Virus record (IMG/VR): IMGVR_UViG_3300032896_000001
Coordinates: 1 to 64,000 of that record
DNA: 64,000 nucleotides
Source: a virus
Reading direction: 5' to 3' (one strand)
Below the pieces are notes generated by a model. It had not been told where the DNA came from, ran no database searches, and worked only from the letters and a program-made list of their open reading frames with translations. This document shows positions 16,880 through 38,175 of this stretch, piece by piece. A program made the position numbers and the translations under genes. How positions within the stretch are numbered: the first letter of the stretch is position 1; each line of letters opens with the position of its first letter.

Positions 16880-16895
16880 CGCCCCGCAGTCGTGG

Positions 16896-16930: not shown

Positions 16931-16980
16931 TCACCCGAAACACCGAAATCGACGGACATGATCATTAAGGACGGGAGAGC

Positions 16981-24586: not shown

Positions 24587-27500
24587 ATGAGCGTCCGATC
24601 CCGCGCCGCCTTCGCCACGGCCCCGACCGTCGAGGTCGCCAAGGTCTTCGGCCCGGGGGTTCCGCCGGCGATCCAGGCGGCTGAGGCCGAGGCGCAGATG
24701 ACGCCGACGAGCCCGTTCGGCCCCGGCACCCCGATCGGCCCGTACGACGGGTTCTCGCGGCAGCCGCGCAGCCAGAATTTCGTCACCGGGGTCAACATCG
24801 CGACCCGGCCGCGGACGCATGAGCGGGTCAGCTTCGAGACGCTCAAGGGCCTCATCGACGCTTATGACATTGCATCTATTGCGATCTGGCATCGTATTGA
24901 CTCGATCCGCAGCCTGGATTGGCAGCTCATCGCGGCGCCGCATTTCCAGGGCAATGTGACCGACATTATCCCGCTCGGGGTCAAGGCGCTCAAGAAGCCG
25001 GACCGGATCAACTCGTTCAGCTCATGGCTGGCGAAGTGGCTTTTCGATGTTCTCGCCTATGACGCGGGGGCGCTTTACAGGCTCCGCAACCGGGCGGGCC
25101 GGTGCATCGGCCTCCTGCCGATTGACGGGACCTCGGTGGCACCGCTGCTCGATTACTGGGGCAACCCGCCGGGTGCCTTGAGCGCCCCGGGCGAGGTGCT
25201 TCCCGAGGCGTACGTCCAGTATGTCAACGGGCTGCCGTGGAACTGGCTGACGCGCGATGACCTGATCTACCAGCCGTTCCGGCCGCGCACCAACTCGCCG
25301 TACGGGCACGCGCCGCTCGAGTCGATAATTCTGAATGCAAACACCGATATTCGCTTTCAGCTTTTTTTCCTTCAAAGATTCACCGAGGGGAATATCCCGG
25401 AGGCGTTCGCGGCCGCCCCCGAGACGTGGTCGCCGGATCAGATAGAGCAATTCCAGGAATACTGGGATGGCTTTATGTACGGCGATCAGTCGCGGAAGCA
25501 CCAGATTCGGTGGATGCCGGGCGGGTCGAAATTCGCGTGGTCCAATGAGAAGGACTTCAGCGACACGTTCTCGCTGTTCCTGATGCGGAAGACTCTCGCC
25601 GCGTATCACACGGTCCCGGCCGACATCGGATTCACGGAAAATGTAAACAAATCGTCCGGGGAATCGCAGGCGGACGTTCAGCACCGCGTCGGCGAACTGC
25701 CCCTCGACGCCTACGTCGAGGCCGTCCTGACGGACTTCCTGCAAGACGACCTCGGCCTGCCGCTCCAGTTCGAGTTCGACAAGGGCGAAGAACAGGACGA
25801 CCGGCTCGCGGTCGCGCAGGCCGACGAGATCTACATGCGCAACGCCGTCATCGGCTCCAGCGAGATCCGGGAGATGCGGTTCGGCCTCCCCGAGCCCGAC
25901 GGGCAGGTCGTCCCCCGCGGGTTCTTCACCGAGCGGTCCGGGCTCATCCCGATCAACTCGGTGCTCGCCGTGGCAGGGCCGATCGACCCCGCGACCGCCG
26001 CGCCCGAGCCGGGCGCCCCGCTGCCCCACACCGTGTTCGGGGGCGTCGAGGGCGTCCTGCCGAACCCGCCGATCAAGGTCCCGAGCCTCGCCGAGCAGGA
26101 GTACGGCCCGGCGGCGATGCCCCCTGCGCCGCCCCCTCAGCCGAAGATGACCGCCGCCGACGCCACGCCCGAGCTGGCCACCGGGGCGGTCTCCAAGGAA
26201 GGCGAGGGAGCGGGAGGGAACGTCACCGGGGGCATCACGACGGCGACGGGCCTGTACTCCTACGACCTCCAGGGCCAGGACGACGAGGACGGCCCGGTTG
26301 ATCAGGCGGCGGTCGCGAAGGAGATGCAGGCGTTCCGGCGGTTCGCGAAGGCGCGCCGCAGGGACGGGGAATGGCGGGACTTCGAGTTCCGGGCGGTCCC
26401 CGCAGGCAGGGCGCGGCAGCTGAACGCCGAGGGCTTCACCGCCGCCCGCAAGGCGGCCGTGCCCGGTCTCACGTCCCGCTCCGGCATGATCTCCCTCGAC
26501 CTGCCGCCGGGAACGCTCAGCCCGGTACCGGGCGGCGTGGACGACTTCCACGTGACCGTCGTGTACCTCGGCAAGGACGTGGACGACGACGCGTTCGCCG
26601 CAGTCTGCGAGCGGGCGCGCCAGGCCGCCGCCCTGGTGCCCGGCCCGCTTCAGGGCACGGTCTCCGGCGTGGGCGCGTTCCCTCCGTCGGACTCGAGCGA
26701 CGGCAAGGTGCCCGCGTGGGCCGCCGTCGGCATCCCCGGCGCGGAAGCCCTGCGGAACGCGCTCGCCGACCTGTCTGCGAGCGAGCACAAGGACTGGACG
26801 CCGCACGTCACCCTCGCCTACCTCGACCCGGGCGACCCGCTGCCGGCCCCGCTGGAGCCGGTGCCGGTGACGTTCGCGTGCCTGTCGGTGCACCGCGGCG
26901 ACCAGGTGGAGCTGTTCCCGTTCGGCGGCGATGACGTGGCCAAGGCGGCGAGCACGATCCCAAAAGCGCCGACGGGGACCGGTGACGCCGCCCCCGCCTG
27001 GCACGGTTGGACTCTCGACGGGAAGACCGCCGCGCACTGGGCCCCGAAGGTCCGCGACTCGGTTAAGGCGGCGGTCCCGAGGGCGAAGGCCCGGGACATG
27101 GGCCGCGACTATCTCGCCGACCACCCGGATCAGGACGGCGGGGCGCCGGACAAGCGGGACCGGAACAAGGGTGCCGCGGCGTGGGTGGCCGCGTGGCTCG
27201 CACGGCACGGGATCACTCTCGTCCCGTCGGCGGTGGCCGAGGCGATCGCCGTGGACGGCTACGCGATCGGCGCCGTCTCCGCTCAGCATCAGGTCACCGG
27301 GGAGCGCCCGGCGGCGCAGAAGCCGGGCGACACCGACCGGGCGCTCGAGGCGGTCGGCGCGGCCGGGCTCCTCGCCGCCCTCGCCGCGGCGATGCGCGGG
27401 GAGAACGGCGCCCCGGCGGCCGAGGCGGTCGCCGACGGGATTGCCCGCGGGTACGGGAACGCCCTCGCGATCATCCTCGCAGGGACCGACGCCGACTGGG

Positions 27501-27829
27501 CGGACAGCCAGGACACGCTCGACGAGCTCGGGGACATGCTCTCCGAAGCGCTCTACGACGAGGACACCGCCGTCACGCTCGTCGGGACGCAGATCAACAT
27601 CTGGACCGGCTTGTCCGCGCACGAGTACTACATGGCGAACAGCGTGGCGTGGATTAGATGGCAAACGGAAGAGGACGGGCGCGTCTGCCCGCGCTGCGGC
27701 GAGAACGAGGACGCAGGCCCGGTGCTGACGGGCCAGCCGTTTCCTGATGGCCACACCTCGACACCGGGCCACGACCGGTGTCGCTGTGCGATCCTGCCGG
27801 CTTCCCCGCCGGGCGTGGCGCTGTCATGA
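24587..27829 (+). CDS. Portal protein fused to 2H phosphoesterase and MuF-like domains
   Basis: At 1,080 residues this is about twice a normal portal. Residues 60-480 are the portal (GRCIGLLPIDGTSVAPLLDY, VQYVNGLPWNWLTRDDLIY, DIGFTENVNKSSGESQADVQ). After a Pro-rich linker (500-560), residues 600-790 carry two HxT motifs, DDFHVTVVYLG at His655 and PHVTLAYL at His740, the signature of 2H phosphoesterases (LigT, 2-5A and anti-CBASS Acb1 relatives). Residues 985-1080 resemble the Mu gpF C-terminus: WIRWQTEEDGRVCPRCGENE then HDRCRCAILP. A GGGGAGGG site precedes the ATG. The fusion places an enzyme in each portal subunit. A local AT-rich patch lies at 25318-25385. Confidence 0.88.
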   Translation: MSVRSRAAFATAPTVEVAKVFGPGVPPAIQAAEAEAQMTPTSPFGPGTPIGPYDGFSRQPRSQNFVTGVNIATRPRTHERVSFETLKGLIDAYDIASIAIWHRIDSIRSLDWQLIAAPHFQGNVTDIIPLGVKALKKPDRINSFSSWLAKWLFDVLAYDAGALYRLRNRAGRCIGLLPIDGTSVAPLLDYWGNPPGALSAPGEVLPEAYVQYVNGLPWNWLTRDDLIYQPFRPRTNSPYGHAPLESIILNANTDIRFQLFFLQRFTEGNIPEAFAAAPETWSPDQIEQFQEYWDGFMYGDQSRKHQIRWMPGGSKFAWSNEKDFSDTFSLFLMRKTLAAYHTVPADIGFTENVNKSSGESQADVQHRVGELPLDAYVEAVLTDFLQDDLGLPLQFEFDKGEEQDDRLAVAQADEIYMRNAVIGSSEIREMRFGLPEPDGQVVPRGFFTERSGLIPINSVLAVAGPIDPATAAPEPGAPLPHTVFGGVEGVLPNPPIKVPSLAEQEYGPAAMPPAPPPQPKMTAADATPELATGAVSKEGEGAGGNVTGGITTATGLYSYDLQGQDDEDGPVDQAAVAKEMQAFRRFAKARRRDGEWRDFEFRAVPAGRARQLNAEGFTAARKAAVPGLTSRSGMISLDLPPGTLSPVPGGVDDFHVTVVYLGKDVDDDAFAAVCERARQAAALVPGPLQGTVSGVGAFPPSDSSDGKVPAWAAVGIPGAEALRNALADLSASEHKDWTPHVTLAYLDPGDPLPAPLEPVPVTFACLSVHRGDQVELFPFGGDDVAKAASTIPKAPTGTGDAAPAWHGWTLDGKTAAHWAPKVRDSVKAAVPRAKARDMGRDYLADHPDQDGGAPDKRDRNKGAAAWVAAWLARHGITLVPSAVAEAIAVDGYAIGAVSAQHQVTGERPAAQKPGDTDRALEAVGAAGLLAALAAAMRGENGAPAAEAVADGIARGYGNALAIILAGTDADWADSQDTLDELGDMLSEALYDEDTAVTLVGTQINIWTGLSAHEYYMANSVAWIRWQTEEDGRVCPRCGENEDAGPVLTGQPFPDGHTSTPGHDRCRCAILPASPPGVALS

Positions 27830-28084
27830 GGCGGGCTTGCGCGGCCTGCCGCCGCCGGCTCCCTGCCCGGGGAGCGAGTCCTTCCACCGCCTGATCTCGT
27901 CCATGCGGCCGGGGAGCCAGCCGGGGACGGCGCGATCGTCGCCCTCGTCGTCGCCGATCCAGACGTCCGGCTCGGGGAACGGCGTGGGCGTGTCCTTCCA
28001 GCGGTTGCGCAGGGTGCCGACGAGGTGGCGGGAGCCGCCGAGTTGGCGGCTGATCGCGGCCTGGCTGAGGTAGCGGGTTGCCAT
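27824..28084 (-). CDS. HTH-like accessory protein, reverse strand
   Basis: An 86-residue protein; residues 3-30 (RYLSQAAISRQLGGSRHLVG) look like an HTH and the rest is acidic then basic. Five bases separate it from the upstream minus-strand gene, so the two form an operon with the promoter at 28375-28403. Confidence 0.6.
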   Translation of the reverse strand: MATRYLSQAAISRQLGGSRHLVGTLRNRWKDTPTPFPEPDVWIGDDEGDDRAVPGWLPGRMDEIRRWKDSLPGQGAGGGRPRKPAS

Positions 28085-28089
28085 CGCGG

Positions 28090-28341
28090 TTACCGGGGGG
28101 CGATGACGCCGGGGATGCCAGGGCCGGCCAGGAGGGTGAACTGGGCGAGGCCGTCGCTGCGGTCGCTCACGGCCCAGGTGTTCGGGCCGGTGCTTGCGAC
28201 GGCGGCGGGGCGCGTGGTCACGGGCCGCAGGGCGGCGGGCTTCGCGGTCTGCATGGCGCGGAACTTCGCGCGGGCGGCCTGCTCGGCGTCGCTCTGGCGG
28301 CCGTTCATCAGGTTCGCGATCCAGGTCTCGTAGCTCTCCAC
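28090..28341 (-). CDS. Small hypothetical protein, first gene of reverse cassette
   Basis: An 83-residue protein with a helical N-terminus (ESYETWIANLMNGRQSDAEQ) and an Ala/Pro-rich end. GTG start with an upstream AAGGGG site. No family recognised. Confidence 0.58.
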   Translation of the reverse strand: MESYETWIANLMNGRQSDAEQAARAKFRAMQTAKPAALRPVTTRPAAVASTGPNTWAVSDRSDGLAQFTLLAGPGIPGVIAPR

Positions 28342-28374
28342 CGGTTTCCCCTTACCTCGTTTGCTTATGTCTCA

Positions 28375-28403
28375 AGGTTATCGCGGGGAACATCGCCTGT
28401 CAA
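28375..28403 (-). promoter_or_regulatory. Near-consensus promoter of the reverse cassette
   Basis: On the minus strand TTGACA (28403-28398), 17 bases, TAACCT (28380-28375); the expected start point is about 27 bases before the GTG at 28341. A second TGACA lies just upstream (GTGACAAGTGTTGACA), a possible operator. Confidence 0.75.
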
Positions 28404-28467
28404 CACTTGTCACGAAGTTTATTTCCCACCACCGCCACCGCCACCAACCACCACCAGGAGTTCCGCC

Positions 28468-28770
28468 ATGCCCGACAACCCGCCGCCCGTCTACAAGTGG
28501 GCCGTGACGCTCGCCAACGCCACGCTCGGCGGGTCGGCCTTCGAGATCGAGGCCGCCTACCCCGTCATCGAGGACACCGGGCACATGGTCCTCAAGGACG
28601 CCGGCCACAAGCCCGTGTTCTCAGCCGAGCCGGGGCTCGGGTGCACCTTCGAACGGCGGGCGCGGGTCACCGACCCCGCAGCCGACAACCCGCCGCCCGG
28701 CACCGGCTACTGGCCGTGCGGGTGCCCGGTCGAGTCCCTCGAGGCGAAGCGCGACGGGACGCGGCTCTAG
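28468..28770 (+). CDS. Hypothetical protein with Cys-rich end
   Basis: A 100-residue beta-rich protein (YKWAVTLANATLGGSAFEIE) with CGCP near the C-terminus. An AGGAG site lies 8 bases before the ATG. Preceded by a run of CCACC repeats (28427-28456). Function unknown. Confidence 0.6.
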   Translation: MPDNPPPVYKWAVTLANATLGGSAFEIEAAYPVIEDTGHMVLKDAGHKPVFSAEPGLGCTFERRARVTDPAADNPPPGTGYWPCGCPVESLEAKRDGTRL

Positions 28771-28774
28771 CCGT

Positions 28775-29413
28775 TCACGGCTCGCGAGGCGCGGGGAACT
28801 GCGTGTCGCACGTCAGGCACAGCTGGGCGACTACCTCGCCCGCAAGCGACTGCACCGGCTCTACCTCAAGGTGCCTGCACCGGGCCTTGACCCACCGGTC
28901 GGGAACGCCGATGCCGCGGACGACCTTCCATTCCCAGCGCGGGTCAAGCTCGACCGCGCCTGAGTCGGGGCGCGTGACGGCGGGCTTCGCCGCGACCGTC
29001 TTGGGCGGCGTCACCGCGACAGCGCGCGCTTCCGTCCTGCCCGGCCGTTCCGCCGTCCCTCCGGCCGCGAGGTACGCCCGGTTCGCGATCGCGTCCCACT
29101 GCCGCTGACGAAGCGCCTCGACCGCCTCCGCGAGCTCCTCGGCGCGCGTCTTCGGTGGCCCGGCGTCGCCCTCCGCCAGCATCGCCTCAGCCCGCAGGCG
29201 GCCGAGCTTCCGCCGCTCCCAGACGGCCAGCGCGGCCATGAGCGCGAGCAGGATGCCCGGCTTCCAGGAGGCGCCGGGCGCGGCCGCCAGGACGAGGCAG
29301 AAGGCGAAGGCCCCGCCGACCACGCCGCCCGTCGCGAACATCCGCAGCGCCCGGTGGCGCGCGATGCCCCGCCGCAGATCAACCTCTGCCTGCTCCTGCT
29401 CTTTGACGGCCAC
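28775..29413 (-). CDS. Membrane protein with Cys-containing C-terminus
   Basis: A 212-residue protein. Two hydrophobic segments (about 24-45 and 50-65) are followed by a charged coiled region (90-120) and a C-terminal domain ending CRHLEVEPVQSLAGEVVAQL then CLTC, a possible metal site. GTG start. Single-gene reverse cassette between plus-strand genes; role unknown. Confidence 0.6.
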   Translation of the reverse strand: MAVKEQEQAEVDLRRGIARHRALRMFATGGVVGGAFAFCLVLAAAPGASWKPGILLALMAALAVWERRKLGRLRAEAMLAEGDAGPPKTRAEELAEAVEALRQRQWDAIANRAYLAAGGTAERPGRTEARAVAVTPPKTVAAKPAVTRPDSGAVELDPRWEWKVVRGIGVPDRWVKARCRHLEVEPVQSLAGEVVAQLCLTCDTQFPAPREP

Positions 29414-29453
29414 GTCCCCGATTGTCCCCGACGAAACCCGCGACAGGAGCGAA

Positions 29454-29735
29454 GTGGCCCTGACGAGGGTTTGCATTTTCTGCCTTGAGCCGCAGGCGGC
29501 ATGCGTGTGCCCTGACACCGAGGCGCTCGCCGTCGTCCCGTCCTGCTGCGACCTCCACGGGCGCAACTGCGAGCCTCCCGGCGACCTCTGCTGCGACGAG
29601 TGCACCGAGGAGCATCACGGGGCTTGGGTCGACGGCCGCCAGGTCCGCCGGTTCGGTCACCCGCCCGGGGAGACATGCTCGGCACCGGACGCGCCGCCGC
29701 CGCCCGGGATCAAGCCCGACTGGAGACAAGCGTGA
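29454..29735 (+). CDS. Cys-rich small protein
   Basis: A 93-residue protein with nine or more Cys (CIFCLEPQAACVC; CCDLHGRNC; CCDEC) and several His, implying two or three zinc sites. An ACAGGAG site precedes the GTG. It ends in a GTGA overlap with the next gene. Function unknown. Confidence 0.62.
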   Translation: MALTRVCIFCLEPQAACVCPDTEALAVVPSCCDLHGRNCEPPGDLCCDECTEEHHGAWVDGRQVRRFGHPPGETCSAPDAPPPPGIKPDWRQA

Positions 29736-30151
29736 CCGCCGACGGCGACAGCCTCTACATGATCGACGACTGCGAGACGCCGCGCGCGGCCGCCGGACTC
29801 GAGGCGCTCCGCGCGCCGGCCGAGGGCGCGCAGTACCGGGGCGCGATCGTCATCGAGTGGCCGAGGGCCGCCCCGCACGGGGTCGGCGCGATCATCGGGC
29901 GCATGGTCTCGGTCTACGACGCGTTCACCGGCAGCGAGCCCGGGCCGAAGCCGATCTCGACGGTCTCGGAGATCGCCCTCCGCGTGTCGGTGGACGAGAT
30001 CGTGACTGCGGACCTGACCATGTTCGCCGACGAGGCGGGCAACCCGATCCTCGACGGGGAGCCCGTCCCGGACGGCGACGGCTTCCGGACTGGCGTGTTC
30101 CCGTTCCTCGTCAGCGAGATGAGGGTGAGGCACGCCGATGGCGTCCGGTGA
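29732..30151 (+). CDS. Hypothetical beta-rich protein
   Basis: A 139-residue protein with a central strand-rich region (IIGRMVSVYDAFTGSEPGPK, then ISTVSEIALRVSVDEIVTAD). The GTG gives a GTGA overlap with the Cys-rich gene. It overlaps the next gene by 14 bases. Common type among actinophage structural-region accessories, but no name assigned. Confidence 0.62.
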   Translation: MTADGDSLYMIDDCETPRAAAGLEALRAPAEGAQYRGAIVIEWPRAAPHGVGAIIGRMVSVYDAFTGSEPGPKPISTVSEIALRVSVDEIVTADLTMFADEAGNPILDGEPVPDGDGFRTGVFPFLVSEMRVRHADGVR

Positions 30152-30407
30152 GTACCAGCCGGCGGCACCTCTCGGCGACGGCGCGGCCTGCTTCTACCGG
30201 CGCCGGAACCGGGCGGGGGAGTGCGTCGGCCTGACGCCCCTGGACGGCAGGACGATCTTCCCGCTGCGCGACCGCCGGGGCAACGCGCCCGAAGGCGACG
30301 GGCCTGCTTACGTTCAGATGGTCAACGGCCTGCCGTGGAACTGGCTGACCCGCGATGATCTTGTCGTCCGGTACCCGGCCGGGCCGGAATGCGGGACGGT
30401 AGCGTGA
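30138..30407 (+). CDS. Free-standing portal-segment protein
   Basis: An 89-residue protein corresponding to one internal stretch of the portal (about residues 160-240): FYRRRNRAGECVGLTPLDGR aligns with LYRLRNRAGRCIGLLPIDGT, and VQMVNGLPWNWLTRDDLVV with VQYVNGLPWNWLTRDDLIY. The intervening length differs slightly. It has its own ATG and lies in an operon, so it is probably expressed. It could be a relic of a duplicated portal or a protein that mimics a portal surface. Confidence 0.7.
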   Translation: MASGEYQPAAPLGDGAACFYRRRNRAGECVGLTPLDGRTIFPLRDRRGNAPEGDGPAYVQMVNGLPWNWLTRDDLVVRYPAGPECGTVA

Positions 30408-30438
30408 GCGGCATGAGCGAGACGGCGGAAGGCCGCTA

Positions 30439-30759
30439 GTGTCCGTGAGCCTGTGGGATTTCCGCCACTGCGACCAGTGCCGACTCGGAGGATGCATCGT
30501 CATGTCCTGCCCGGGCGGAAACTGCCCTTGCGCCGGGAAGCACCCTGATGCGCACGGCGCCGAGGCCGCGACCCTAGAGCCGTTCCTCGCCTTCACCGAC
30601 GAGCACGGCGAGTTCCTCAGCCGCCTCTTCGGCCCGGCCGCCGATGAGCCCTCATCCGGGCCGCCCTACACCCACGTGCACCGGCTCCCGGAGACCGAGG
30701 AGGAGATGGCGGCCGCGCCGCTGCTTCCCTCGCACACGATCACCAGGGAGAGCGAGTGA
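30439..30759 (+). CDS. Hypothetical protein with N-terminal Cys cluster
   Basis: A 106-residue protein with CDQCRLGGC and CPGGNCPC in the first 32 residues (a possible metal-binding site), then an acidic region. GTG start; ATGA overlap with the next gene. Not recognised. Confidence 0.58.
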   Translation: MSVSLWDFRHCDQCRLGGCIVMSCPGGNCPCAGKHPDAHGAEAATLEPFLAFTDEHGEFLSRLFGPAADEPSSGPPYTHVHRLPETEEEMAAAPLLPSHTITRESE

Positions 30760-31400
30760 CGTCCGGCTGGGCCTGCCCGCAGTGCTCCAACGTGATGGCG
30801 CCGTTCATCGTCTCCTGTCCGTTCTGCACGAAGGCGGCGGGAAGCGCCGTTCCGGGCTTCAGGGCGGGCGACCGGGCATGGCCGAAGGCGGACGGCCCGA
30901 TGGCCCTCCAGCGTGCGCCACAGACCGTCCTGGCGTCCCGCCGCGACCCGGTGTTCGGGGACTGGCTGTGGCTTGACGGCGGCTCCGGCCACTTCGGGTC
31001 ATGGTCGGCCGGGCACTGGACGACGGACGAGCCGGGCGACGCGGAGAAAGCCGAGATCACGGAGCGCGCACGGCGGCGCGCCGAGGAGAACGACCGCATG
31101 ACCCCGAGGCGGTCGCACTCGCTCACGTTCGGCGGCGGCCTCGCGGGCATCAGCGAGCCGGGCGACCGATCCCCTGGCATGCCCCCGCCGGGATACGTCG
31201 GGCTGCCCCTTCCCTCCGCCCTGACGCCCGGAGCCGAGTACCGCCTCATGGTGGGCGGCAACTGGGCCGAGATACTCCCCGACTTGGAGTGCCGCATGGT
31301 CCGCGCCATCTGGGCGTGCGCCCCTGACGGCAAGCCGGTCGGCGTCGACCTTGAGTTCCGCCGCACCCCGCAGGCCGCCGGCGACAGTAAGGGCGATTGA
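30756..31400 (+). CDS. Hypothetical protein with N-terminal zinc ribbon
   Basis: A 214-residue protein. CPQC...CPFC at residues 7-24 forms a zinc ribbon; the remainder is Trp-rich and hydrophilic, including a charged helix (about 90-112). GTGA overlap with the previous gene. No known function. Confidence 0.62.
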   Translation: MTSGWACPQCSNVMAPFIVSCPFCTKAAGSAVPGFRAGDRAWPKADGPMALQRAPQTVLASRRDPVFGDWLWLDGGSGHFGSWSAGHWTTDEPGDAEKAEITERARRRAEENDRMTPRRSHSLTFGGGLAGISEPGDRSPGMPPPGYVGLPLPSALTPGAEYRLMVGGNWAEILPDLECRMVRAIWACAPDGKPVGVDLEFRRTPQAAGDSKGD

Positions 31401-31720
31401 TGGACGAGGCGCCCAGCTTGACCGCCCTCGCGGCCCTTCTCGCCGACATAGCGCCCCAGCCGCGCCGCGAGCTGCTCTGCGGCCCCGGCGTCATCATGTG
31501 GCTGCGGATCCTGACCCCGGAGGACGCCCCGTCGTTCCCGTGGTCGCAGTCGCCTCCCTTCACGGGCATCCCGCTCATCCACTCGCCGGACCTCGGCCGG
31601 GGCGAGTGGGAGCTTCACGAGAACGGCGAGGCCGTGCGCAGCGGCCGGTTCGACCTGCCGGAGCCCCCGGACTTCCGGTCAGCCGCCCCGCCGGTCGCGT
31701 TCACCCCCCGCCTGATCTAG
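31400..31720 (+). CDS. Hypothetical protein
   Basis: A 106-residue protein with a helical start (LTALAALLADIAPQPRRELL) and a Pro/Trp-rich remainder. It begins with an ATG in a TGATG overlap with the previous stop. Not recognised. Confidence 0.58.
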   Translation: MDEAPSLTALAALLADIAPQPRRELLCGPGVIMWLRILTPEDAPSFPWSQSPPFTGIPLIHSPDLGRGEWELHENGEAVRSGRFDLPEPPDFRSAAPPVAFTPRLI

Positions 31721-32478
31721 AGACAGGGACGGCGGCTCGAATGCCACCTGACAACGAGCACCCCGACGACCCGATGACGGCCCTCGCCGAGGGCGCCGCG
31801 CAGATGCACGAGCTGTTCACCGCCTACGTGGACGCCGGGTTCGCACGCGCCGAGGCGCTCCAGATCCTGATCGCGGTCGTCACCGCGAGCATCCGGCCGC
31901 CGCAGTAGCGCCGGCCTCACGGGAGGACGCCCATGACCACGCCGCCTCCGCGTCCCCCTGTCGCATGGCCCGCCTCCTACTGGCCTCTCCGCCGTGTCCT
32001 GCTCGTGATCTCCGCCGCCCTGTTCGTGCTCGGCTCCCTCACGTTCGCGGGCGATCCCCTCGAGGCGATCCCGGCGTGGACGTGGATGAGCGGGGCGTTC
32101 GCCGCCTGGGTCCTGTCCGGGGCAGCACCGTAACGCTCCCGCCGGAGCGGCCCTCGTCTCCCAGTGCCCGGCCCTCGCAGGCGAGAACGCGAACGTCGGC
32201 CCCGCTTCGCCGTCAACGTAGACGACGACGCACCCCGGCAGCCGCCACGGCGCGGCCCTGACCGCTTCCTCAAAGCCGCCGAAGTCGAGGTAGTTGAAGC
32301 AGGCCGCGTAGACGACGATGCTCGTCACCTTCCGGCCGCCCGCGCCCGCGTGCTCGAGGTCGGTCTTGCCGAGCTGCTGGGGACGCGGGTCGTTCTCCGC
32401 CAGCCGGGCGTTGACGAACGCGACGGCCTCGTCCTCGCCGCCGATCGTCACGACCGCGACATCGGTAAGGAAGCTCAC
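31717..32478 (-). CDS. Hypothetical protein with no stop before running into convergent genes
   Basis: The GTG at 32478 overlaps the upstream stop (GTGA). The first 115 residues or so look coding (VAVVTIGGEDEAVAFVNARL, then TSIVVYAACFNYLDFGGFEE), but no stop occurs until 31717, so 140 more codons are antisense to two good plus-strand genes. The likely explanation is that the 3' end was lost at a recombination junction near 32,140. The true C-terminus is uncertain. Confidence 0.4.
   Translation of the reverse strand: MSFLTDVAVVTIGGEDEAVAFVNARLAENDPRPQQLGKTDLEHAGAGGRKVTSIVVYAACFNYLDFGGFEEAVRAAPWRLPGCVVVYVDGEAGPTFAFSPARAGHWETRAAPAGALRCCPGQDPGGERPAHPRPRRDRLEGIAREREGAEHEQGGGDHEQDTAERPVGGGPCDRGTRRRRGHGRPPVRPALLRRPDARGDDRDQDLERLGACEPGVHVGGEQLVHLRGALGEGRHRVVGVLVVRWHSSRRPCL
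31741..31908 (+). CDS. Small acidic helical protein
   Basis: A 55-residue protein with an amphipathic helix (AQMHELFTAYVDAGFARAEA). ATG after an AGGGACGG stretch. This type of mini-protein is frequent in Streptomyces and actinophage genomes; function unknown. On the opposite strand a reverse-cassette gene has no stop until 31717. Confidence 0.6.
   Translation: MPPDNEHPDDPMTALAEGAAQMHELFTAYVDAGFARAEALQILIAVVTASIRPPQ
31933..32133 (+). CDS. Small membrane protein
   Basis: A 66-residue protein with two hydrophobic segments (about 22-40 and 49-63). GGGAGGACGCCC lies before the ATG. Last plus-strand gene before the 5-kb reverse block; role unknown. Confidence 0.55.
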   Translation: MTTPPPRPPVAWPASYWPLRRVLLVISAALFVLGSLTFAGDPLEAIPAWTWMSGAFAAWVLSGAAP

Positions 32479-32831
32479 GGCGCGGCCCACACTCCGGTCT
32501 TGTAGTCGTAGGCCGGCTTGTCCGGGTGCCCGGCCCAGATGTCGGCCATGGTCTCGATCGCGACCGCAAGCGCGTGAATGTACCCGGCCTGCCTCGCTGT
32601 TGTCTCCGGCGTCATCTCGGCGGCCCTGTAAGGCGCGTCGGCGTAGCTCACGATGGCCCGGTACCGGTCGACGAGCGACATCATCCACGTGACGTCGGGG
32701 GCCGCCGCCGCGAGCTCGCCCGCCGTCGGGCTGCCGGGGACGGCCGCGTACCGCTCGTGCAGGCGGGCGCTGACGAACTCGATCACTGGCGTGATGTCGT
32801 CGCGGATGACAGGCGCGGTCTCTTCGATCAT
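32475..32831 (-). CDS. DUF6221-like hypothetical protein
   Basis: A 118-residue protein: an acidic helical N-terminus (ITPVIEFVSARLHERYAAVP), a helix with DRYRAIV, and a C-terminal HALAVAIETMADIWAGHPDK motif, resembling the domain order of DUF6221 proteins, of which clearer members are at 34702 and 49522. GGAGGAG lies 4 bases before the ATG. Function unknown. Confidence 0.55.
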   Translation of the reverse strand: MIEETAPVIRDDITPVIEFVSARLHERYAAVPGSPTAGELAAAAPDVTWMMSLVDRYRAIVSYADAPYRAAEMTPETTARQAGYIHALAVAIETMADIWAGHPDKPAYDYKTGVWAAP

Positions 32832-32917
32832 GGCTCCTCCAGGTGGCGGCCAGGCGGCGGGCATGTGCACGAGCAGGTAATCACGCCAGGCGGCGTAGGC
32901 GAAGACGTCGTGCCCAC

Positions 32918-33109
32918 TCAGAAGATCACCTGGTGCTCGTACAGCCCGGTCCCGCCGCACGCCGGGTCGGGGTGCAACTCGCCGTCGCAGCGCGGGTCGC
33001 AGCACTGGATAGGGTCGTCGCACTCAACCCAGATCTCGCCTTCGCAGTGCGTGCAGCGCGGGTCGCTGTCGTCGCCGTCATACGGGTCGTTGTCGATGTC
33101 CTGCGTCAT
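32918..33109 (-). CDS. Small acidic Cys-rich protein, copy 2
   Basis: 63 residues; 58 are identical to the protein at 486-677 and all Cys are kept. ATGA overlap with the upstream gene. The changes are substitutions only, which suggests that both copies remain under selection. Confidence 0.75.
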   Translation of the reverse strand: MTQDIDNDPYDGDDSDPRCTHCEGEIWVECDDPIQCCDPRCDGELHPDPACGGTGLYEHQVIF

Positions 33110-33279
33110 TCGGTGCCCCACTCGTACCACCAGGCTTCGGCGCAGTCATCGTGGCAGAACATGCGCCCGTCGTAGCCGACCTCCGGGTTAATGCTCCCGC
33201 ACCAGGCGCAGGTTTCGTCGTGGTCGTCGTCCAGGGTGTCGTCTGCGCCGAGGTAGTTCCCCCGGCCGGCCGCGCTCAC
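33106..33279 (-). CDS. Small Cys/Trp-rich protein, copy 2
   Basis: 57 residues, 51 identical to the protein at 674-847, with both Cys motifs kept. GTG start in a GTGA overlap. Differences cluster at the N-terminus. Confidence 0.72.
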   Translation of the reverse strand: MSAAGRGNYLGADDTLDDDHDETCAWCGSINPEVGYDGRMFCHDDCAEAWWYEWGTE

Positions 33280-33446
33280 GTTGCCGCCAGATCGTCCGGG
33301 CAGTCCGCGCACGGCTCGCTGCCGAGGATAAGCGGCTCGAAGTGGCACTTCCCGGCGCGGGACTCCCAGAACCAGCATGTTTCCCGGCTGTCGGGTACCG
33401 GCTCGTCGTCTACCTCGTCGTCAAGGGTGCTGTTGCTGTCGGTCAC
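33276..33446 (-). CDS. Small Cys-rich protein, copy 2
   Basis: 56 residues, with 5 differences from the protein at 844-1014 in addition to a GTG rather than ATG start. Here it follows directly after the gene at 33443, whereas in the left arm about 3.8 kb of other genes separate the equivalent pair. Confidence 0.74.
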   Translation of the reverse strand: MTDSNSTLDDEVDDEPVPDSRETCWFWESRAGKCHFEPLILGSEPCADCPDDLAAT

Positions 33447-33658
33447 TTCGCACCCGCCGGGCACCACATCGAGCCGGTGTAGACGCTGCGCCACTCGCCG
33501 CGCTGGACCCAGATCGGCACCTCGCAGCCGCCGCACTGGTGGCGAGAGGGACCGCCGTGGCCTCCGGTGACGTCCGTGTAATGGCCGCTGGGGAAGTGCC
33601 TGCCGTCGCCGGCCGGCTGAGGGAATGTCGTTGCGAGCTCGCCGCCAGTGTGGCTCAT
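33443..33658 (-). CDS. Small Cys-containing protein
   Basis: A 71-residue protein with HQCGGC and further Cys/Trp (SMWCPAG), a likely zinc knuckle. ATGA overlap with the HTH gene upstream and GTGA overlap with the duplicated trio downstream. N-terminal Met-Ser-His-Thr as in the 4805 gene. Confidence 0.62.
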   Translation of the reverse strand: MSHTGGELATTFPQPAGDGRHFPSGHYTDVTGGHGGPSRHQCGGCEVPIWVQRGEWRSVYTGSMWCPAGAK

Positions 33659-33903
33659 GGCTGGTCCTCCGTTGTCGCCGTCTTCGCTTTCCGCCCCGGC
33701 CTGCGCGGGGCGGCTAGGTACTTGATCACGTCAGCCTCAACCCAGACCGGGCCCATCGCCAGCACCTGAACGGGCGCGGGGAAGTCCGGACGGTTGGCCA
33801 CCTGCCCGGCGTAGGAGCGGGAGACCTTCGCCTTGCCTGACCGCTCAGCCAGCAGGGCCGCCACCTCGGCGAGCCCTGCCAGCTTCGGGACGGTTCGCTT
33901 CAC
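33655..33903 (-). CDS. Excisionase-like HTH protein, paralogue of 5053 gene
   Basis: An 82-residue protein: LAEVAALLAERSGKAKVSRS (about 11-30) is the HTH and VLAMGPVWVEADVIKYLAAP the wing. It shares length, layout and the basic tail with 5053-5298. ATG in an ATGA overlap with the gene upstream. Confidence 0.72.
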   Translation of the reverse strand: MKRTVPKLAGLAEVAALLAERSGKAKVSRSYAGQVANRPDFPAPVQVLAMGPVWVEADVIKYLAAPRRPGRKAKTATTEDQP

Positions 33904-34175
33904 GCTGCCGCCAGTACCGCGGCGACGATCACGTCAACCTCGTCAAGGTCGTCGTCGCTGTACGCCCACGCCTCGAACGCGGCGTCGGCGGCCGGGCACC
34001 GGCTGGTGATGCTGTCGATGATGACGGCGCGGGTGAGCCGCTCGGCCTCGTCGCGGTTCGGCTTGGCCTCGAGGATCAGGAGCGCCTGGGCGAGGGTCCG
34101 TAGCGGCGTCGCGTTCGTGCGGGCGATCAGCTTCTCGCGGGGCGTCTGGGCTGCGGTGTTCGCGGTCGTTGTCAT
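33900..34175 (-). CDS. Small hypothetical protein from a probable leaderless mRNA
   Basis: A 91-residue, acidic, helical protein starting Met-Thr-Thr-Thr. No ribosome site before the ATG, and the -10 element ends 6 bases before it. It heads the transcription unit that includes the HTH gene and the duplicated trio. Confidence 0.65.
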   Translation of the reverse strand: MTTTANTAAQTPREKLIARTNATPLRTLAQALLILEAKPNRDEAERLTRAVIIDSITSRCPAADAAFEAWAYSDDDLDEVDVIVAAVLAAA

Positions 34176-34181
34176 AGCTCT

Positions 34182-34210
34182 ACAGTATGTCATTAACCTA
34201 ATTTCGTCAA
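34182..34210 (-). promoter_or_regulatory. Promoter for a leaderless transcript
   Basis: On the minus strand TTGACG (34210-34205), 17 bases, TACTGT (34187-34182), then 6 bases to the ATG at 34175. The spacer shares ATTA..TTxATGxCA with the next promoter, an indication of a common regulator. Confidence 0.72.
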
Positions 34211-34227
34211 GTAGTTTCCGTGCGCTT

Positions 34228-34653
34228 TCACGCGATGCCGCCGGCCGCGATGACCTCACGGGCCTCGCGGAGGATCTCGGCGACCCGCTCCGGGGCGTTG
34301 ACGTGGCCCCGGGCCGCCGGGTTGCTGCTGAAGTACAGTTCCCGGATCGCCTTGCGGTCGCCCTCGATCGGCTCCCACCAGGAGAGTTGCTGGCGAGCGT
34401 GCTCAAGCGACTGCTGGCGGCGGTAGTCAGCGGCGGCGGCGGCGTTCCTGATGGCGGTCGCCTTCGCGCCGGTGATCTTCGCGGCGCAGGTGGTGCCCGC
34501 GTAGGTGATCTCTTCGGTGTTGCCGTCCTCGTCGAGGATGTCGAGGATCACGGTGCCCTTGAGCTCGGGCTTCCCGCAGATCTGGCAGGTGGTCACGTCG
34601 TCGGTGGTGCCGCGGACCCGGAAGGCGGCGGGTCCGGTCTGTGTCGTCGTCAT
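34228..34653 (-). CDS. Zinc-ribbon protein from a probable leaderless mRNA
   Basis: A 141-residue protein. TTCQICGKPELKGTVILDIL (about 21-40) plus GTTCAAK (about 53-59) make a CxxC...C type metal site in a beta domain; the rest is helical (RRQQSLEHARQQLSWWEPIE). N-terminus Met-Thr-Thr-Thr-Gln-Thr as in the 5300 gene. Transcription should start at or beside the ATG. Confidence 0.68.
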   Translation of the reverse strand: MTTTQTGPAAFRVRGTTDDVTTCQICGKPELKGTVILDILDEDGNTEEITYAGTTCAAKITGAKATAIRNAAAAADYRRQQSLEHARQQLSWWEPIEGDRKAIRELYFSSNPAARGHVNAPERVAEILREAREVIAAGGIA

Positions 34654-34659
34654 GTCTAG

Positions 34660-34688
34660 ACTTTATGACATCAAGTTAATGATGTCAA
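34660..34688 (-). promoter_or_regulatory. Promoter with perfect palindrome, leaderless
   Basis: On the minus strand TTGACA (34688-34683), 17 bases, TAAAGT (34665-34660), then 6 bases to the ATG at 34653. A perfect inverted repeat, TGACATCA and TGATGTCA with 6 bases between (34666-34687), fills the spacer, so a dimeric repressor bound there would block polymerase. Confidence 0.8.
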
Positions 34689-34701
34689 GTAAATTGGCGT
34701 C

Positions 34702-35106
34702 TCACGGCTTCCATTCCTCCCGGTACCCGTCACGGTGACGGTAGCCGTCCGCAAGCAGACGGACAGCATGGTCCAGCGCCCGCAGGGCGCCGAAAACGCC
34801 TCCGCCGTCCGGGCCGCGCGCACCGCCGAACATGTCCGCCGCCGCGTCGCGCTCCCGGAGGATGGCAAGCTCCGCATCACAGCGGGCGATGGTGCTGAGC
34901 GGCTGCTGGCGCAGGATGTGCCGGGCCGCGTAGTCGCCTATTACAGCCGCGACCGGGCCGCCCTGCTCGTCCACGATGCCGGTCGCGGCCGCCTCCCACG
35001 GCTCCGGGTCGGCTGTCCACCGCAGGCGGATGACCTTGACGCTCGCGGCCCGCTTGTCCGCCTCGATCTCGGCGCGCAGCCAGGCCGCCAGGTCGTCACT
35101 CGCCAT
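34702..35106 (-). CDS. DUF6221-family protein
   Basis: A 134-residue protein. The pattern DDLAAWLRAEIEADKRAA at the N-terminus, IARCDAELAIL in the middle and VRLLADGYRHRDGYREEWKP at the end is that of DUF6221, a small actinobacterial and actinophage family of unknown function. Overlaps the upstream gene by 11 bases. Confidence 0.75.
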   Translation of the reverse strand: MASDDLAAWLRAEIEADKRAASVKVIRLRWTADPEPWEAAATGIVDEQGGPVAAVIGDYAARHILRQQPLSTIARCDAELAILRERDAAADMFGGARGPDGGGVFGALRALDHAVRLLADGYRHRDGYREEWKP

Positions 35107-35629
35107 CGGCCACCCACTCGAACCTCATGCCGTAGAGCAGTTCCCCTGCGAACCGCTCGTTGATCAGTTCCGTGACGTCCGCGATCCGGTCGGGGAGCCG
35201 GGCGGCGAACGCATCCTGCTCTGCGCGCATCCTCGCCCATGCGGCCTCGAAGGCGAGCGCGTCCAGTTCGGTGACCGGCGCTTCCTCTGGCGGCAGTGGC
35301 AGGAAGGCGCCAGCGTGGGCCAGCGCGTCCCCGAGCGCATACTGCTGCGACGGCGCCCACCCGACCCCGGATCCTGCCGGGCAGCCCGGCCGCAGGCACC
35401 TGGCCGCCCAGTCCCCCTCGCCGCGCTTCCATACCCGGCACCGGTGAACTTCGACCACCAGGCCGAGCCGCCGCCTGACTTCCTCGATCCACTCGCGCCG
35501 GGCGAGCCTCTCCAGTTCCCGGCGGTTCGCGGTGAACTGCCGTGCCCACGCCTTGGTCTCGGCCCACTCCTGATTCGAGGGGATGCGCGAGAACGGCGCG
35601 GACGCGGACGGCGGCCATTCATCGCTCAC
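35096..35629 (-). CDS. Hypothetical protein
   Basis: A 177-residue protein with a helical first part (ETKAWARQFTANRRELERLA), a Cys-containing centre (RCLRPGCPAG) and a helical end. GTG start in a GTGA overlap with the gene upstream. Not recognised. Confidence 0.6.
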   Translation of the reverse strand: MSDEWPPSASAPFSRIPSNQEWAETKAWARQFTANRRELERLARREWIEEVRRRLGLVVEVHRCRVWKRGEGDWAARCLRPGCPAGSGVGWAPSQQYALGDALAHAGAFLPLPPEEAPVTELDALAFEAAWARMRAEQDAFAARLPDRIADVTELINERFAGELLYGMRFEWVADGE

Positions 35630-35910
35630 GGCCGCATCATCCTTATCGTCCCCTCGGGGACGCCCGCCGCCCGCAGGCTCTCTTCGCGCCCGGCGAGCGC
35701 ATCGGCCCCGTGATGCTTGGCGAGCAGGTCGGCGTGACGCGGGCAGACGCCCACGCGGACCGCCCCGCCGTGCACGGGGACGAAGAAGTACAGCGGCCCG
35801 GGGCCCTGCTCGGCCTCACACCCGATGACCCCGTCATCGGAGAGCCACGGGTGGGCTTCACGCCACGCCTTGGTCGGCGTCGCGTAGAACTGGCACGTAG
35901 GCATTCTCAT
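35626..35910 (-). CDS. Small hypothetical protein beside tRNA-like gene
   Basis: A 94-residue protein with Cys/His residues (VCPRHADLLAKHHGADALAG) and a central strand (LYFFVPVHGGAVRVGV). ATG at 35910, 33 bases after the tRNA-like gene. An alternative start two codons later exists. Function unknown. Confidence 0.6.
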   Translation of the reverse strand: MRMPTCQFYATPTKAWREAHPWLSDDGVIGCEAEQGPGPLYFFVPVHGGAVRVGVCPRHADLLAKHHGADALAGREESLRAAGVPEGTIRMMRP

Positions 35911-35942
35911 GGGCCCGATTCTGCCAGCAGGAAGCGGAAGCG

Positions 35943-36088
35943 GCGGCCGACGGGATTCGAACCCGCGAAGGCTTCCGCGCTGCGCTGGCGCGTCTTTGTC
36001 CCGGGTCACCGGGAGCGCCTCGCCCGGCTCACTTTGCCGTGACCGGCGTTTCCTGCCGGGCCGCGTTAGGCCGCTCTGCCACAGCCGC
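35943..36088 (-). tRNA. Atypical, oversized tRNA-like gene
   Basis: The ends are typical: a 7-base-pair acceptor stem (GCGGCTG with CGGCCGC) and a T arm GCGGG-TTCGAAT-CCCGT. The D region (GCAGAGCGGCCTAACGC) resembles class II Ser/Leu tRNAs of actinobacteria, with one stem mismatch. But the gene is 146 bases, about 60 more than a class II tRNA. A 5-bp hairpin CCGGC-AGGAAAC-GCCGG could be the anticodon arm (Ser GGA or Phe GAA by position, lacking T33); another pairing, GCCCGGC with GCCGGGC, makes a 26-base loop. No CCA is encoded. It may carry an insertion or be degenerate. Confidence 0.5.
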
Positions 36089-36113
36089 CGCTTCCGCCGT
36101 GAAGCGTACCGCC

Positions 36114-37361
36114 TCAGGACCACAGCGGCATCTGCCCCCTCGTCGGCCGCCTCGCCGCACGCCCGAACTGCTTGAACTTCGGCCGCCCCTCCCTGGTGCC
36201 CCTCTGGGCCGGGCCGAGCAGATCGGCGAGCTCAAGCCCTGACGCCTCGCGCACGCGGGCGAGGATGAGCTGCCCGACGTTCCGCGCGGCCTTCACATCG
36301 CACTCGGCAAGCCGCACGATCGTCCATCCCTCGGCGCGCATGCGGGCGTCCCGCTTCGCGTCCTTGACAGCGCGGACCTTGTGCCAGAAGTCGCCGTCCG
36401 CCTCGATGGCTAGCTTGTGCTTCGGCACAGCGAAGTCGATCGACCAGCGGAGGAACGGGTACTCCTGCGCGAAGCCGACGCCCAGCAATTCGAGCGCAAC
36501 CCGGACGCTCGCCTCCAGCTGCGTCTCGCCCATGAACTGGCGAACGCAGGAGACCGAGCAGAACCGCCTCTTCACGTCACTCGCATGCGTCCGGAATTCC
36601 TTACCGCAGTTGTGGCACGCCATCATGAGCGGCGGCCGGCGGCACTCCTCGGAGCAGAAGCGCCTGTGCCAGCCCTCGCGGGTGTAGTCGGGTAGCCGCT
36701 TGCCGCAACGCTCGCAATCGACGTACACAGTATTCACGTTCTGACAGGCCCACCCGCATGTCTGGTAGCGGTCCTCGTTCGACCGCGCGATTGTGAAGTC
36801 CCTGCCGCACACAGGGCACGTCTTGGTGATCGTCCGGCCCCCGCTGCGGCACCTCATGGAGCAGAAGGGCCAGCCGCTCGTTATCACGTAGTCCCTGGTG
36901 AAGGACTTGCCACATCTCGCGCAGTCGTAGGCGTAGACCACGGGCTCCGGGTTAAGCCGAAGGTGCCGGGGATTCACGCACCTGTTGTGCGGGTCGCTGC
37001 CGCCGGAAGTCGGACAGTCCTTTGGACAGCACGTGTGGCCGACCTCCCGCCCCTCGGGGATGGGTCCGATGAAGAACTCATACGCCCATCGGTGCGCCTT
37101 GCGCTGAGGCGGCTTGCCGTCCTTGACGTAGATGTTCGCGTGACCGCTTTTCGGGTGAATCGAGTTCGTGTACAGCCAGCAGGCGTTCGGCCCGCCGGAT
37201 CTGTCGGAGTAGCCGAGGAACCTGACGATCACGGGCACATAGGTGTGCGGCCTGAAGGCCGCAACCTGCGGCAGCAACGGCTCGATGTAGTGCTCCAGGC
37301 ACAGGCCGTCGATTATCGGCCCGTCGATGCAACCAGCACCCGGGCATGTAGATTCGAGCAC
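36114..37361 (-). CDS. HNH - zinc finger array - Vsr-like endonuclease fusion
   Basis: A 415-residue protein. Residues 6-25 hold a Cys knuckle; 60-135 an HNH domain (CWLYTN, HRWAYEFFIGPIPEGREVGH, RCVNPRHL) in which the usual Asp before the first catalytic His is Gly; 145-275 four tandem CxxCG...C...C zinc fingers; 282-372 a Vsr/DUF559-like PD-(D/E)XK domain with WSIDFAVPKHKLAIEADGDF-WH and GWTIVRL. The last part matches the EDxHD homing-nuclease relatives of Vsr. GGAAGGAG precedes the GTG. Likely a homing endonuclease; the zinc fingers would set target choice. It borders the abnormal tRNA-like gene. Confidence 0.82.
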   Translation of the reverse strand: MLESTCPGAGCIDGPIIDGLCLEHYIEPLLPQVAAFRPHTYVPVIVRFLGYSDRSGGPNACWLYTNSIHPKSGHANIYVKDGKPPQRKAHRWAYEFFIGPIPEGREVGHTCCPKDCPTSGGSDPHNRCVNPRHLRLNPEPVVYAYDCARCGKSFTRDYVITSGWPFCSMRCRSGGRTITKTCPVCGRDFTIARSNEDRYQTCGWACQNVNTVYVDCERCGKRLPDYTREGWHRRFCSEECRRPPLMMACHNCGKEFRTHASDVKRRFCSVSCVRQFMGETQLEASVRVALELLGVGFAQEYPFLRWSIDFAVPKHKLAIEADGDFWHKVRAVKDAKRDARMRAEGWTIVRLAECDVKAARNVGQLILARVREASGLELADLLGPAQRGTREGRPKFKQFGRAARRPTRGQMPLWS

Positions 37362-37448
37362 GGCGACTCCTTCCAGTCGTCCAAGCCCCGGGCCGGGACA
37401 ACGAATGCGCCACATTCGCCGGTCGTGGGGGTTTCGCGTGCTAATTCG

Positions 37449-37518: not shown

Positions 37519-38175
37519 ATGGGCGATGCGAGCCTGCTTGGCCCCTTCGGCGAGACCGACTGCCGGCAGCCGCACATGTACGCCCGGGACATCCGCTCGG
37601 CCGCGGGGAACTGCGTGTGCAAGGCGGCACCCTGGGATGCCCGGCATGAGGCGATCGCCCCGGGCCTGGGTGCCTCTGAGCTCCGCGCGGCGATCCGGAA
37701 GTGCATCGGCGGGGAGCCCGTCCGGGAGTTCTCCGAGGAGATCCAGCGCGGCGTGGTCCGGCAGCTGATCCCGGTCGCCAAGAGCGCCGAGAAGCAATTT
37801 CTGCTCGGCCTGGCCTATGTCGCCGGCCGTGATCCGCGTATCCGCAAGGGCATGGACGGCGGCCGTGATTTTCTCGACCCCGAAGACCTCGAGCGCGCCT
37901 GCTGGTCCTTCCTCCCGGGTGGCGGCCAGGTCGGCATCGGGCACATCGACGGCACTCTCGGGCACCTGACCGTGACCGAGAACTACATCTACCGCGGCCC
38001 GGACTGGGAGCAGCCGTCCGGCTTGGTCCTGAAGTCCGGCATGGCGTGGCTTATCGGGGGCCTGTGTGATGACCATGCCTGGCGGATGGCCAAGGCCGGG
38101 CATGTGAACGGGTTCTCCCCCCAAGGCGGGGGACGGCGGCTCAAGGTTCCGGCCATGGCGGGAGGTCTGTCGTGA
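37519..38175 (+). CDS. XkdF-like capsid maturation protease
   Basis: A 218-residue protein. From about residue 85 it follows the phage XkdF pattern: RGVVRQLIPVAKSAEKQFLL, then FLDPEDLERACWSFL, QVGIGHIDGTLGHLTVTENY and AGHVNGFSPQGGG, with the His of GIGHID as a possible catalytic residue. XkdF-type proteins are putative serine proteases that process the head. AGGTG lies before the ATG. First gene of the head operon after the reverse block; GTGA overlap with the scaffold-like gene. Confidence 0.72.
   Translation: MGDASLLGPFGETDCRQPHMYARDIRSAAGNCVCKAAPWDARHEAIAPGLGASELRAAIRKCIGGEPVREFSEEIQRGVVRQLIPVAKSAEKQFLLGLAYVAGRDPRIRKGMDGGRDFLDPEDLERACWSFLPGGGQVGIGHIDGTLGHLTVTENYIYRGPDWEQPSGLVLKSGMAWLIGGLCDDHAWRMAKAGHVNGFSPQGGGRRLKVPAMAGGLS

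What the first reader, a model, noticed from the sequence alone, without database searches (positions are those of the whole stretch)
32140..37361. Early-gene block inserted backwards into the late operon, with a copied trio
A 5.2-kb reverse block sits between head genes. Its order (leaderless-promoter gene, HTH, Met-Ser-His-Thr gene, three Cys-rich genes) repeats the left arm, where about 3.8 kb of extra genes separates the fourth and fifth elements. The last three genes are gap-free copies with boundaries at gene edges. This looks like modular transposition of complete early operons, and both copies keep all Cys, so dosage or diversification is being selected.
Basis: partly seen in the sequence, partly recalled or inferred. 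Interest (0 to 1): 0.7.

Follow-up and report, generated by a model that had tools for sequence, protein, structure and literature searches.

The report
Backward accessory-gene island in phage head operon
In this virus of streptomycete-like bacteria, a backward-facing cluster of small accessory genes with its own switches sits between two head genes that lie side by side in most relatives; it is a patchwork of separately exchanged genes, a known kind of phage cargo rather than one jumping operon.

Summary
The observation largely holds. A reverse-strand block (about 32,150-37,415) lies between the portal (24,587-27,829) and head-protease (37,519-38,175) genes, and a three-gene stretch in it matches the left arm over 529 ungapped nt at about 92%. 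The repeated order is only partly homologous: the HTH gene and the trio are copies; the "leaderless" and "Met-Ser-His-Thr" genes are not.

The interpretation, transposition of a complete early operon, is not supported. Portal and protease are adjacent (<=60 nt) in 39 of 59 de-duplicated junctions; 17 of 59 carry >350 nt there, 14 of those with reverse genes, with differing contents. Similar reverse islands recur at other late junctions. Where an island begins, 35 of 62 first genes have a -10-like element 6-8 nt before the start codon, against 21 of 676 late genes. Contents are exchanged gene by gene: one relative's island joins left-arm-type and block-type genes; another has a gene fused at a 15-nt shared word. 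In the third trio gene the block copy is the canonical one; the left-arm copy is diverged. The block is a moron-type island at a hotspot; cluster O mycobacteriophages are the closest printed precedent found. A tRNA-like RNA heading some islands is the odd part.

The parts
24587..27829 (+). portal fusion gene; left border of the insertion site
   Evidence: Pfam Phage_portal 7.7e-10 (just under its cut-off) and 2_5_RNA_ligase2; adjacent to the protease in relatives
27824..32133 (.). left part of the composite insertion: small genes on both strands, including a fragment resembling the portal (30,138-30,407)
   Evidence: gene calls; portal-like repeat 25,072-25,263 / 30,190-30,361 at 68%; several families at the same site in L008, L010, L090
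32152..32478 (-). last gene of the block; family also at portal|protease in L078 and, as a remote match, at protease|scaffold in L022
   Evidence: tblastn with the L088 protein: 80% (window), 53% (L078), 34% (L022); junctions
32475..32831 (-). 118-aa gene, function unknown; homologues in L088 and L090
32918..33109 (-). trio gene 3, Cys-rich 63 aa (possible zinc ribbon by inference)
   Evidence: 92% aa to 486-677; 28 invariant columns in 9 proteins; no Pfam, PHROG or PADLOC hit; fold not predictable, pLDDT 45
33106..33279 (-). trio gene 2, Cys-rich 57 aa
   Evidence: copy of 674-841; weak hit to phrog_2308, which also matches the Zn-finger part of the nuclease
33276..33446 (-). trio gene 1, Cys-rich 56 aa
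   Evidence: copy of 844-1014
486..1014 (-). left-arm copy of the trio, diverged from block and outgroups in its third gene
33443..33658 (-). Met-Ser-His-Thr gene; not homologous to 4805-5056
   Evidence: z 0.6; homologue in L095
33655..33903 (-). HTH/excisionase-like gene, homologous to 5053-5298
   Evidence: z 35.5; phrog_2790 at E 0.005
5053..5298 (-). left-arm HTH homologue
33900..34175 (-). small gene with a leaderless-type promoter directly upstream
   Evidence: TTGACG...CATACT 8 nt before ATG
34228..34653 (-). small gene with a leaderless-type promoter
   Evidence: promoter match 34,688-34,660 (10 of 12 positions; 2 found in the region, 0.4 expected by shuffling)
34666..34687 (-). operator-like palindrome overlapping that promoter
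   Evidence: read from the upstream sequence printed; not tested statistically
34702..35106 (-). DUF6221 gene, recurrent gene of the reverse islands
   Evidence: Pfam PF19730 1.7e-17; 25 family genes found (one a second fetch of this gene), 19 placed in scored junctions, all 19 reverse
35096..35629 (-). 177-aa gene, homologues at the same site in L010, L088, L090
35626..35904 (-). first gene of the older island; -10-like element GGCAGAAT as in L028/L031
35935..36095 (-). tRNA-like RNA: T-arm plus 17-bp closing stem, approximate ends
36114..37361 (-). HNH + zinc-finger-like + DUF559/Vsr-like nuclease
   Evidence: DUF559 6.9e-10; HNH_3 7.3e-5 (below cut-off); PHROG HNH 2.5e-19; 63% homologue alone at this junction in L049
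37449..37476 (-). promoter-like site ahead of the nuclease gene (TTTATA-16-TATAAT)
37519..38175 (+). head maturation protease; right border
   Evidence: Pfam Peptidase_S78_2 5.2e-8
49522..49896 (-). second DUF6221 gene, in the reverse island before the major tail protein gene
   Evidence: PF19730 4.9e-15

Best explanation
The block is a moron-type accessory island sitting in an insertion hotspot, the portal|protease junction of the late operon. It is on the strand opposite to the head genes, and its reverse units start from their own host-type, often leaderless, promoters, so it can be expressed while the late genes are silent (early or in the prophage; inferred). It grew by piecemeal gain, loss and fusion of single genes or short runs. 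The agent is most likely recombination between short shared sequences in co-infecting or resident phages (inferred); a homing-type HNH/Vsr-like nuclease at the protease end may provide breaks at this junction (inferred). The left arm draws on the same gene pool, and the trio occurs in both places because it is one of the exchanged modules, not because a whole operon jumped.
For: Empty site: 39 of 59 de-duplicated junctions have <=60 nt between portal and protease; in the named relative Mufasa8 they overlap by 8 nt. Occupied site: 17 of 59 hold >350 nt, 14 of 17 with called reverse genes, 48 reverse and 34 forward genes in all. Other junctions show the same: before the major tail protein 7 of 12 occupied, all 7 with reverse genes (21 reverse, 1 forward); protease|scaffold 6 of 59 occupied, 4 with reverse; tape measure|minor tail 5 of 9, all 5; several junctions never. 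Own promoters: xAxxxT 6-8 nt before the start in 35 of 62 first reverse genes, 3 of 42 internal ones, 21 of 676 late genes, while Shine-Dalgarno-like words are in 13 of 62 against 436 of 676 (the motif was chosen). DUF6221 genes are reverse in 19 of 19 placed cases, at two junctions. Gene-by-gene exchange: L088's island has g5/g4 of the left arm (90%, 85% nt) together with g65/g64 (86%) and the trio end through the last gene (81%) of the block; one contig carries the Cys genes at two late junctions; L090 has an in-frame DUF6221-Cys-gene fusion with the crossover in a 15-nt word shared by the two L088 genes, the longest they share (shuffles: mean 8.3, max 12). The nuclease is found alone at the same junction in L049 (63% aa), and an HNH part in L104.
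Against: No transcription data. Terminators are not above chance (3 found, 3.4 expected). GC of the block is like its surroundings, so no foreign composition. 34 forward genes also lie in the portal|protease insertions. The promoter motif is simple and was chosen post hoc; 27 of 62 first genes lack it. No target site of the nuclease was identified.
Confidence: 0.8

Rival explanations
1. En-bloc transposition or segmental duplication of an early operon from the left arm into the late operon.
For: HTH and trio are in the same order in both places and the trio is about 92% identical.
Against: Two of the six elements are unrelated; the HTH pair is only 73% identical over 172 bp where the trio is 92%, so they did not move together; outgroups match the block copy better than the left copy in the third trio gene; contents differ between occupied relatives.
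Confidence: 0.1
2. Homing-endonuclease element: the HNH/Vsr-like nuclease moved itself, with the neighbouring genes as passengers, into the portal|protease junction.
For: The nuclease is at the protease end; a 63% homologue sits alone at the same junction in L049 and an HNH portion in L104; hits to homing-endonuclease models.
Against: Most occupied sites showed no such nuclease: of the 28 loci with >100 nt between the matches (duplicates not removed), only L049 showed it. In the window it lies outside the older island start at 35,904, so it looks like a later arrival (inferred).
Confidence: 0.25
3. Ordinary ancestral operon that most relatives lost, rather than an insertion.
For: DUF6221 recurs in many occupied sites.
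Against: Majority empty with short joins, a relative with 40% capsid identity empty too, and very different contents among occupied sites.
Confidence: 0.07
4. Assembly artefact: chimeric joining at the trio repeat.
For: Two 529-nt copies at 92% could confuse an assembler.
Against: At 92% identity the copies differ about every 12 nt; the same late-site arrangement occurs in independent contigs (L088, L090).
Confidence: 0.03

Closest known systems
Cluster O mycobacteriophages (Corndog and relatives), PMC4351075 (passages seen)
   Same: Leftward genes at the left end, a rightward structural operon interrupted by up to four sets of small leftward genes, a predicted SigA-like leaderless-type promoter for such a gene, extra genes between portal and protease, and a long leftward right arm.
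   Different: There the portal-protease insert described is methyl- and glycosyltransferase genes; DUF6221, a Cys trio and a tRNA-like RNA were not mentioned in the passages I saw. Homology to Corndog was not tested as such.
Prophage morons / accessory loci, e.g. STMMW_20121 of ST64B, PMC7067206 (passages seen)
   Same: Gene antisense to lytic genes with its own promoter in a late region.
   Different: Expression there was measured; here it is inferred.
Arthrobacter phages Mufasa8 and Sonali
   Same: Same head module; capsid protein 39-40% identical.
   Different: Mufasa8 has no insert at the portal|protease junction; Sonali's was not looked at.
Free-standing HNH endonucleases of phages
   Same: HNH_3 and Vsr/DUF559-type domains in a gene between phage genes.
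   Different: HNH plus several zinc-finger-like Cys clusters plus DUF559 in one protein; no known target.

Membership tests
moron / accessory island | inserted between genes adjacent in relatives | tested here: met
   39 of 59 junctions adjacent; Mufasa8 overlap
moron / accessory island | own promoter | tested here: met
   sequence motifs only:
moron / accessory island | own terminator | tested here: inconclusive
   3 found, 3.4 expected
moron / accessory island | base composition unlike the neighbours (often seen, not universal) | tested here: not met
   GC 0.67-0.70 in the block, similar around it
moron / accessory island | expressed in lysogen, dispensable for lytic growth | not testable with these tools
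   needs RNA-seq and deletion
transposable operon | whole unit found at more than one site | tested here: not met
   only HTH and trio shared; contents differ
transposable operon | terminal repeats, target duplication, transposase | tested here: inconclusive
   (window-wide, >=40 nt) showed no repeat flanking the block, shorter ones were not searched; no transposase among Pfam hits
homing endonuclease (36,114-37,361) | HNH or related nuclease domains | tested here: met
   (HNH_3 itself just below the Pfam cut-off)
homing endonuclease (36,114-37,361) | cuts the empty site | not testable with these tools
   needs an enzyme assay
tRNA gene (35,935-36,095) | canonical cloverleaf of about 75-90 nt found by ARAGORN or Rfam | tested here: not met
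   0 in the window, no tRNA hit at E<=1; T-arm present, 17-bp stem

The most novel reading that the evidence does not exclude
The tRNA-like RNA is a dedicated head element of reverse islands: a T-arm beside an unusually long closing stem (12-17 bp), just upstream of the island's leaderless promoter, seen at the portal|protease junction here and ahead of the reverse genes before the head-tail adaptor gene in L010 and L028/L031. It could separate the island's transcript from upstream RNA through tRNA-processing enzymes, or act as a decoy for tRNA-cutting defence enzymes.
Probability: 0.12. Interest if true: 0.65.

Novelty: new member of a known kind. Interest (0 to 1): 0.35.

Why it matters
It gives a worked case in which island growth can be read step by step: empty sites, single-gene sites, composite sites, a fusion at a 15-nt word, and the same families at several late junctions. 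Leaderless promoters at the heads of backward islands give a simple sequence rule for finding cargo that may be expressed from the prophage (candidate defence or host-modifying genes) in actinobacterial phages. The function of the cargo stays unknown.

Tried and rejected
DNA search of 30-40 kb in the phage collection: no match. DUF6221 (both genes) and the Cys gene in the phage collection by tblastn: no match. PADLOC: only the nuclease, a weak homing-endonuclease hit. DUF6221 fold: predicted helical, pLDDT 81; no PDB match at E<=0.001, best viral match an uncharacterized Arthrobacter phage protein at E 0.009. Cys protein fold: unusable. A first promoter pattern (TTGAC + -10) gave 5 of 118 reverse island genes, 0 of 118 forward, 1 of 843 late; two of the five looked like coding sequence, so I did not rest on it. 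Literature: no paper with 'DUF6221'; a search for tRNA-like phage RNA gave nothing close among the ten listed. ARAGORN with relaxed settings gave only doubtful folds. Rfam low-score hits Pyrobac-1, PhotoRC-I and YrlA (all below gathering) were taken as chance.

Limits of the counts: my own gene caller missed at least one real gene; 16 near-duplicate loci were dropped before the counts; L090 and L091 are parts of one contig and overlap, so some junctions around the capsid gene may be counted twice; the relatives were gathered by capsid protein similarity (80 of 91 kept; 6 from genomes) and by the Cys gene (12), so loci with Cys genes are over-represented. In my first checkpoint note I wrote about 37 adjacent loci; a recount of that table gives 33 of 61 with 52 nt or less and 28 of 61 above 100 nt, duplicates not removed.
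Full report
What the sequence is. The window is bases 1-64,000 of a linear 105,095-base IMG/VR virus record, about 70% GC. Terminase, portal, protease, a scaffold-like gene and the capsid gene run rightward from 21 to 42 kb. Capsid relatives in named genomes are in Streptomyces (4 of 6), Kitasatospora (1) and a Catenulispora MAG (1), so the host is probably of that group (inference).

Check of the observation. The reverse block is real and runs from 32,152 to 37,361 or 37,415. The trio copies are real: 529 nt, no gap, about 92%. The repeated order is only partly homologous: HTH (z 35.5) and trio (z 43-47) are, the Met-Ser-His-Thr pair (z 0.6) and the leaderless pair (z 0.0, 2.4) are not. The trio is followed in the block by two more genes.

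Insertion site. In one search, 61 loci held both portal and protease matches; the smallest gaps were 3 nt. After dropping 16 near-duplicates, one search scored 59 junctions including the window: 39 at <=60 nt, 17 above 350 nt, 14 of those with called reverse genes. The window's insert is 9.7 kb and composite, with forward genes too and a portal-like fragment at 30,138-30,407. In Arthrobacter phage Mufasa8, whose capsid protein is 40% identical, gene 3 and the protease overlap by 8 nt; the record labels gene 3 a NUDIX hydrolase, and I take it as the portal by size and position.

Other junctions. Reverse genes also fill the junction before the major tail protein (7 of 12 above 350 nt, all 7 with reverse genes; 21 reverse, 1 forward), tape measure|minor tail (5 of 9, all 5), the gene 78|adaptor junction (6 of 7, all 6; 9 reverse, 6 forward), gene 77|adaptor where 78 was not found (16 of 33, 5 with reverse; 10 reverse, 22 forward) and protease|scaffold (6 of 59, 4 with reverse). 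Scaffold|capsid (0 of 71) and two tail junctions (0 of 23, 0 of 12) have no long gap. Capsid|gene 77 is different: 29 of 60 above 350 nt, but 21 forward and 2 reverse genes, several of them HNH-like.

Promoters. At the heads of reverse islands I saw a -10-like element ending 6-8 nt before the start codon. Counted afterwards with a pattern chosen from that list: 35 of 62 first genes, 3 of 42 internal, 21 of 676 late forward genes (Fisher p 1.6e-28 against late, 1.1e-7 against internal); Shine-Dalgarno-like words in 13 of 62, 21 of 42 and 436 of 676. Related contigs are not independent; 58 distinct upstream sequences gave 31 hits. In the window two sigma-70-type promoter-like sites precede the nuclease gene and the 34,228-34,653 gene.

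How it grew. L088's island, next to the portal end of that contig, contains g68, g67, then g5 and g4 of the window's left arm (90% and 85% nt), then g65-g64 (86%) and the trio end through the last gene (81%) of the block. L008 and L061 carry a homologue of left-arm gene 1450-1845 at this site. One 27-kb contig carries the Cys genes at two late junctions. L090 holds an in-frame fusion of a DUF6221 start with the Cys gene; its crossover lies in the 15-nt word that is the longest shared by these two genes in L088. These point to gene-sized exchange by short homologies rather than one transposition.

The trio. dN/dS between copies is 0.13, 0.30 and 0.35, dS 0.46, 0.18 and 0.16 for the third, second and first gene, so the third gene has a history of its own. 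Over 135 nt of that gene, with 10 outgroups, the left copy carries 8-14 unique changes and the block copy 0-4. The left copy has T and G where the other eight proteins have D and R.

The nuclease and the RNA. The 415-aa protein combines an HNH_3 match, zinc-finger-like Cys clusters and DUF559. A 63% homologue sits alone at the portal|protease junction of L049, and an HNH part in L104. Between it and the next gene lies a tRNA-like RNA: T-arm and 17-bp stem. Scanning 1.35 Mb for a T-arm plus a stem of at least 9 bp gave 6 hits, of which 5 intergenic: window, L010, L028, L031 (L028 and L031 are close relatives) and an ordinary-looking tRNA cluster in L103; the control gave one hit in 0.78 Mb of locally shuffled sequence. 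In window, L010, L028 and L031 it lies just upstream of reverse island genes. L022 has a shorter cloverleaf-like one.

Judgement. The block is a moron-type island, a new member of a known kind. Shown: insertion site, orientation bias, exchange of contents, promoter-like motifs. Inferred: timing of expression, benefit, the recombination route and the role of the nuclease.

Noticed in passing
window 43,387-44,037 (-): A perfect tandem duplication (period 324 nt, 327 nt matched at 100%) inside a reverse gene, in frame; a recent event or an assembly artefact. A homologue in L097 matches both copies.
   Followed up: no
window 35,935-36,095 (-); L010 near 16,880; L028 near 14,542; L031 near 13,963; L022 near 571: tRNA-like RNAs with long closing stems next to reverse islands.
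   Followed up: partly
window 30,138-30,407: Gene resembling a piece of the portal gene (68% over 193 nt), possibly a relic of recombination.
   Followed up: no
window 14,525-18,066: FtsK/HerA-like and DUF2637 genes, recalled as typical of actinomycete conjugative elements; the phage may borrow such a module.
   Followed up: no
window 6,975-8,547 (-): DUF5753 and DUF6879 genes side by side, a pair recalled from Streptomyces regulators.
   Followed up: no
window 5,590-6,129 (-): Protein that looked to me Mom-like (recalled); PHROG 24928 of unknown function.
   Followed up: no
L092 and L097, Cys-gene locus: N-terminal part of trio gene 2 appears joined to the C-terminal part of trio gene 3 (read from the sequences).
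   Followed up: partly
L006 (record 85,057-103,961): A long run of small reverse genes in the right arm, like the left arm; if the record were circular the two arms would form one leftward region.
   Followed up: no
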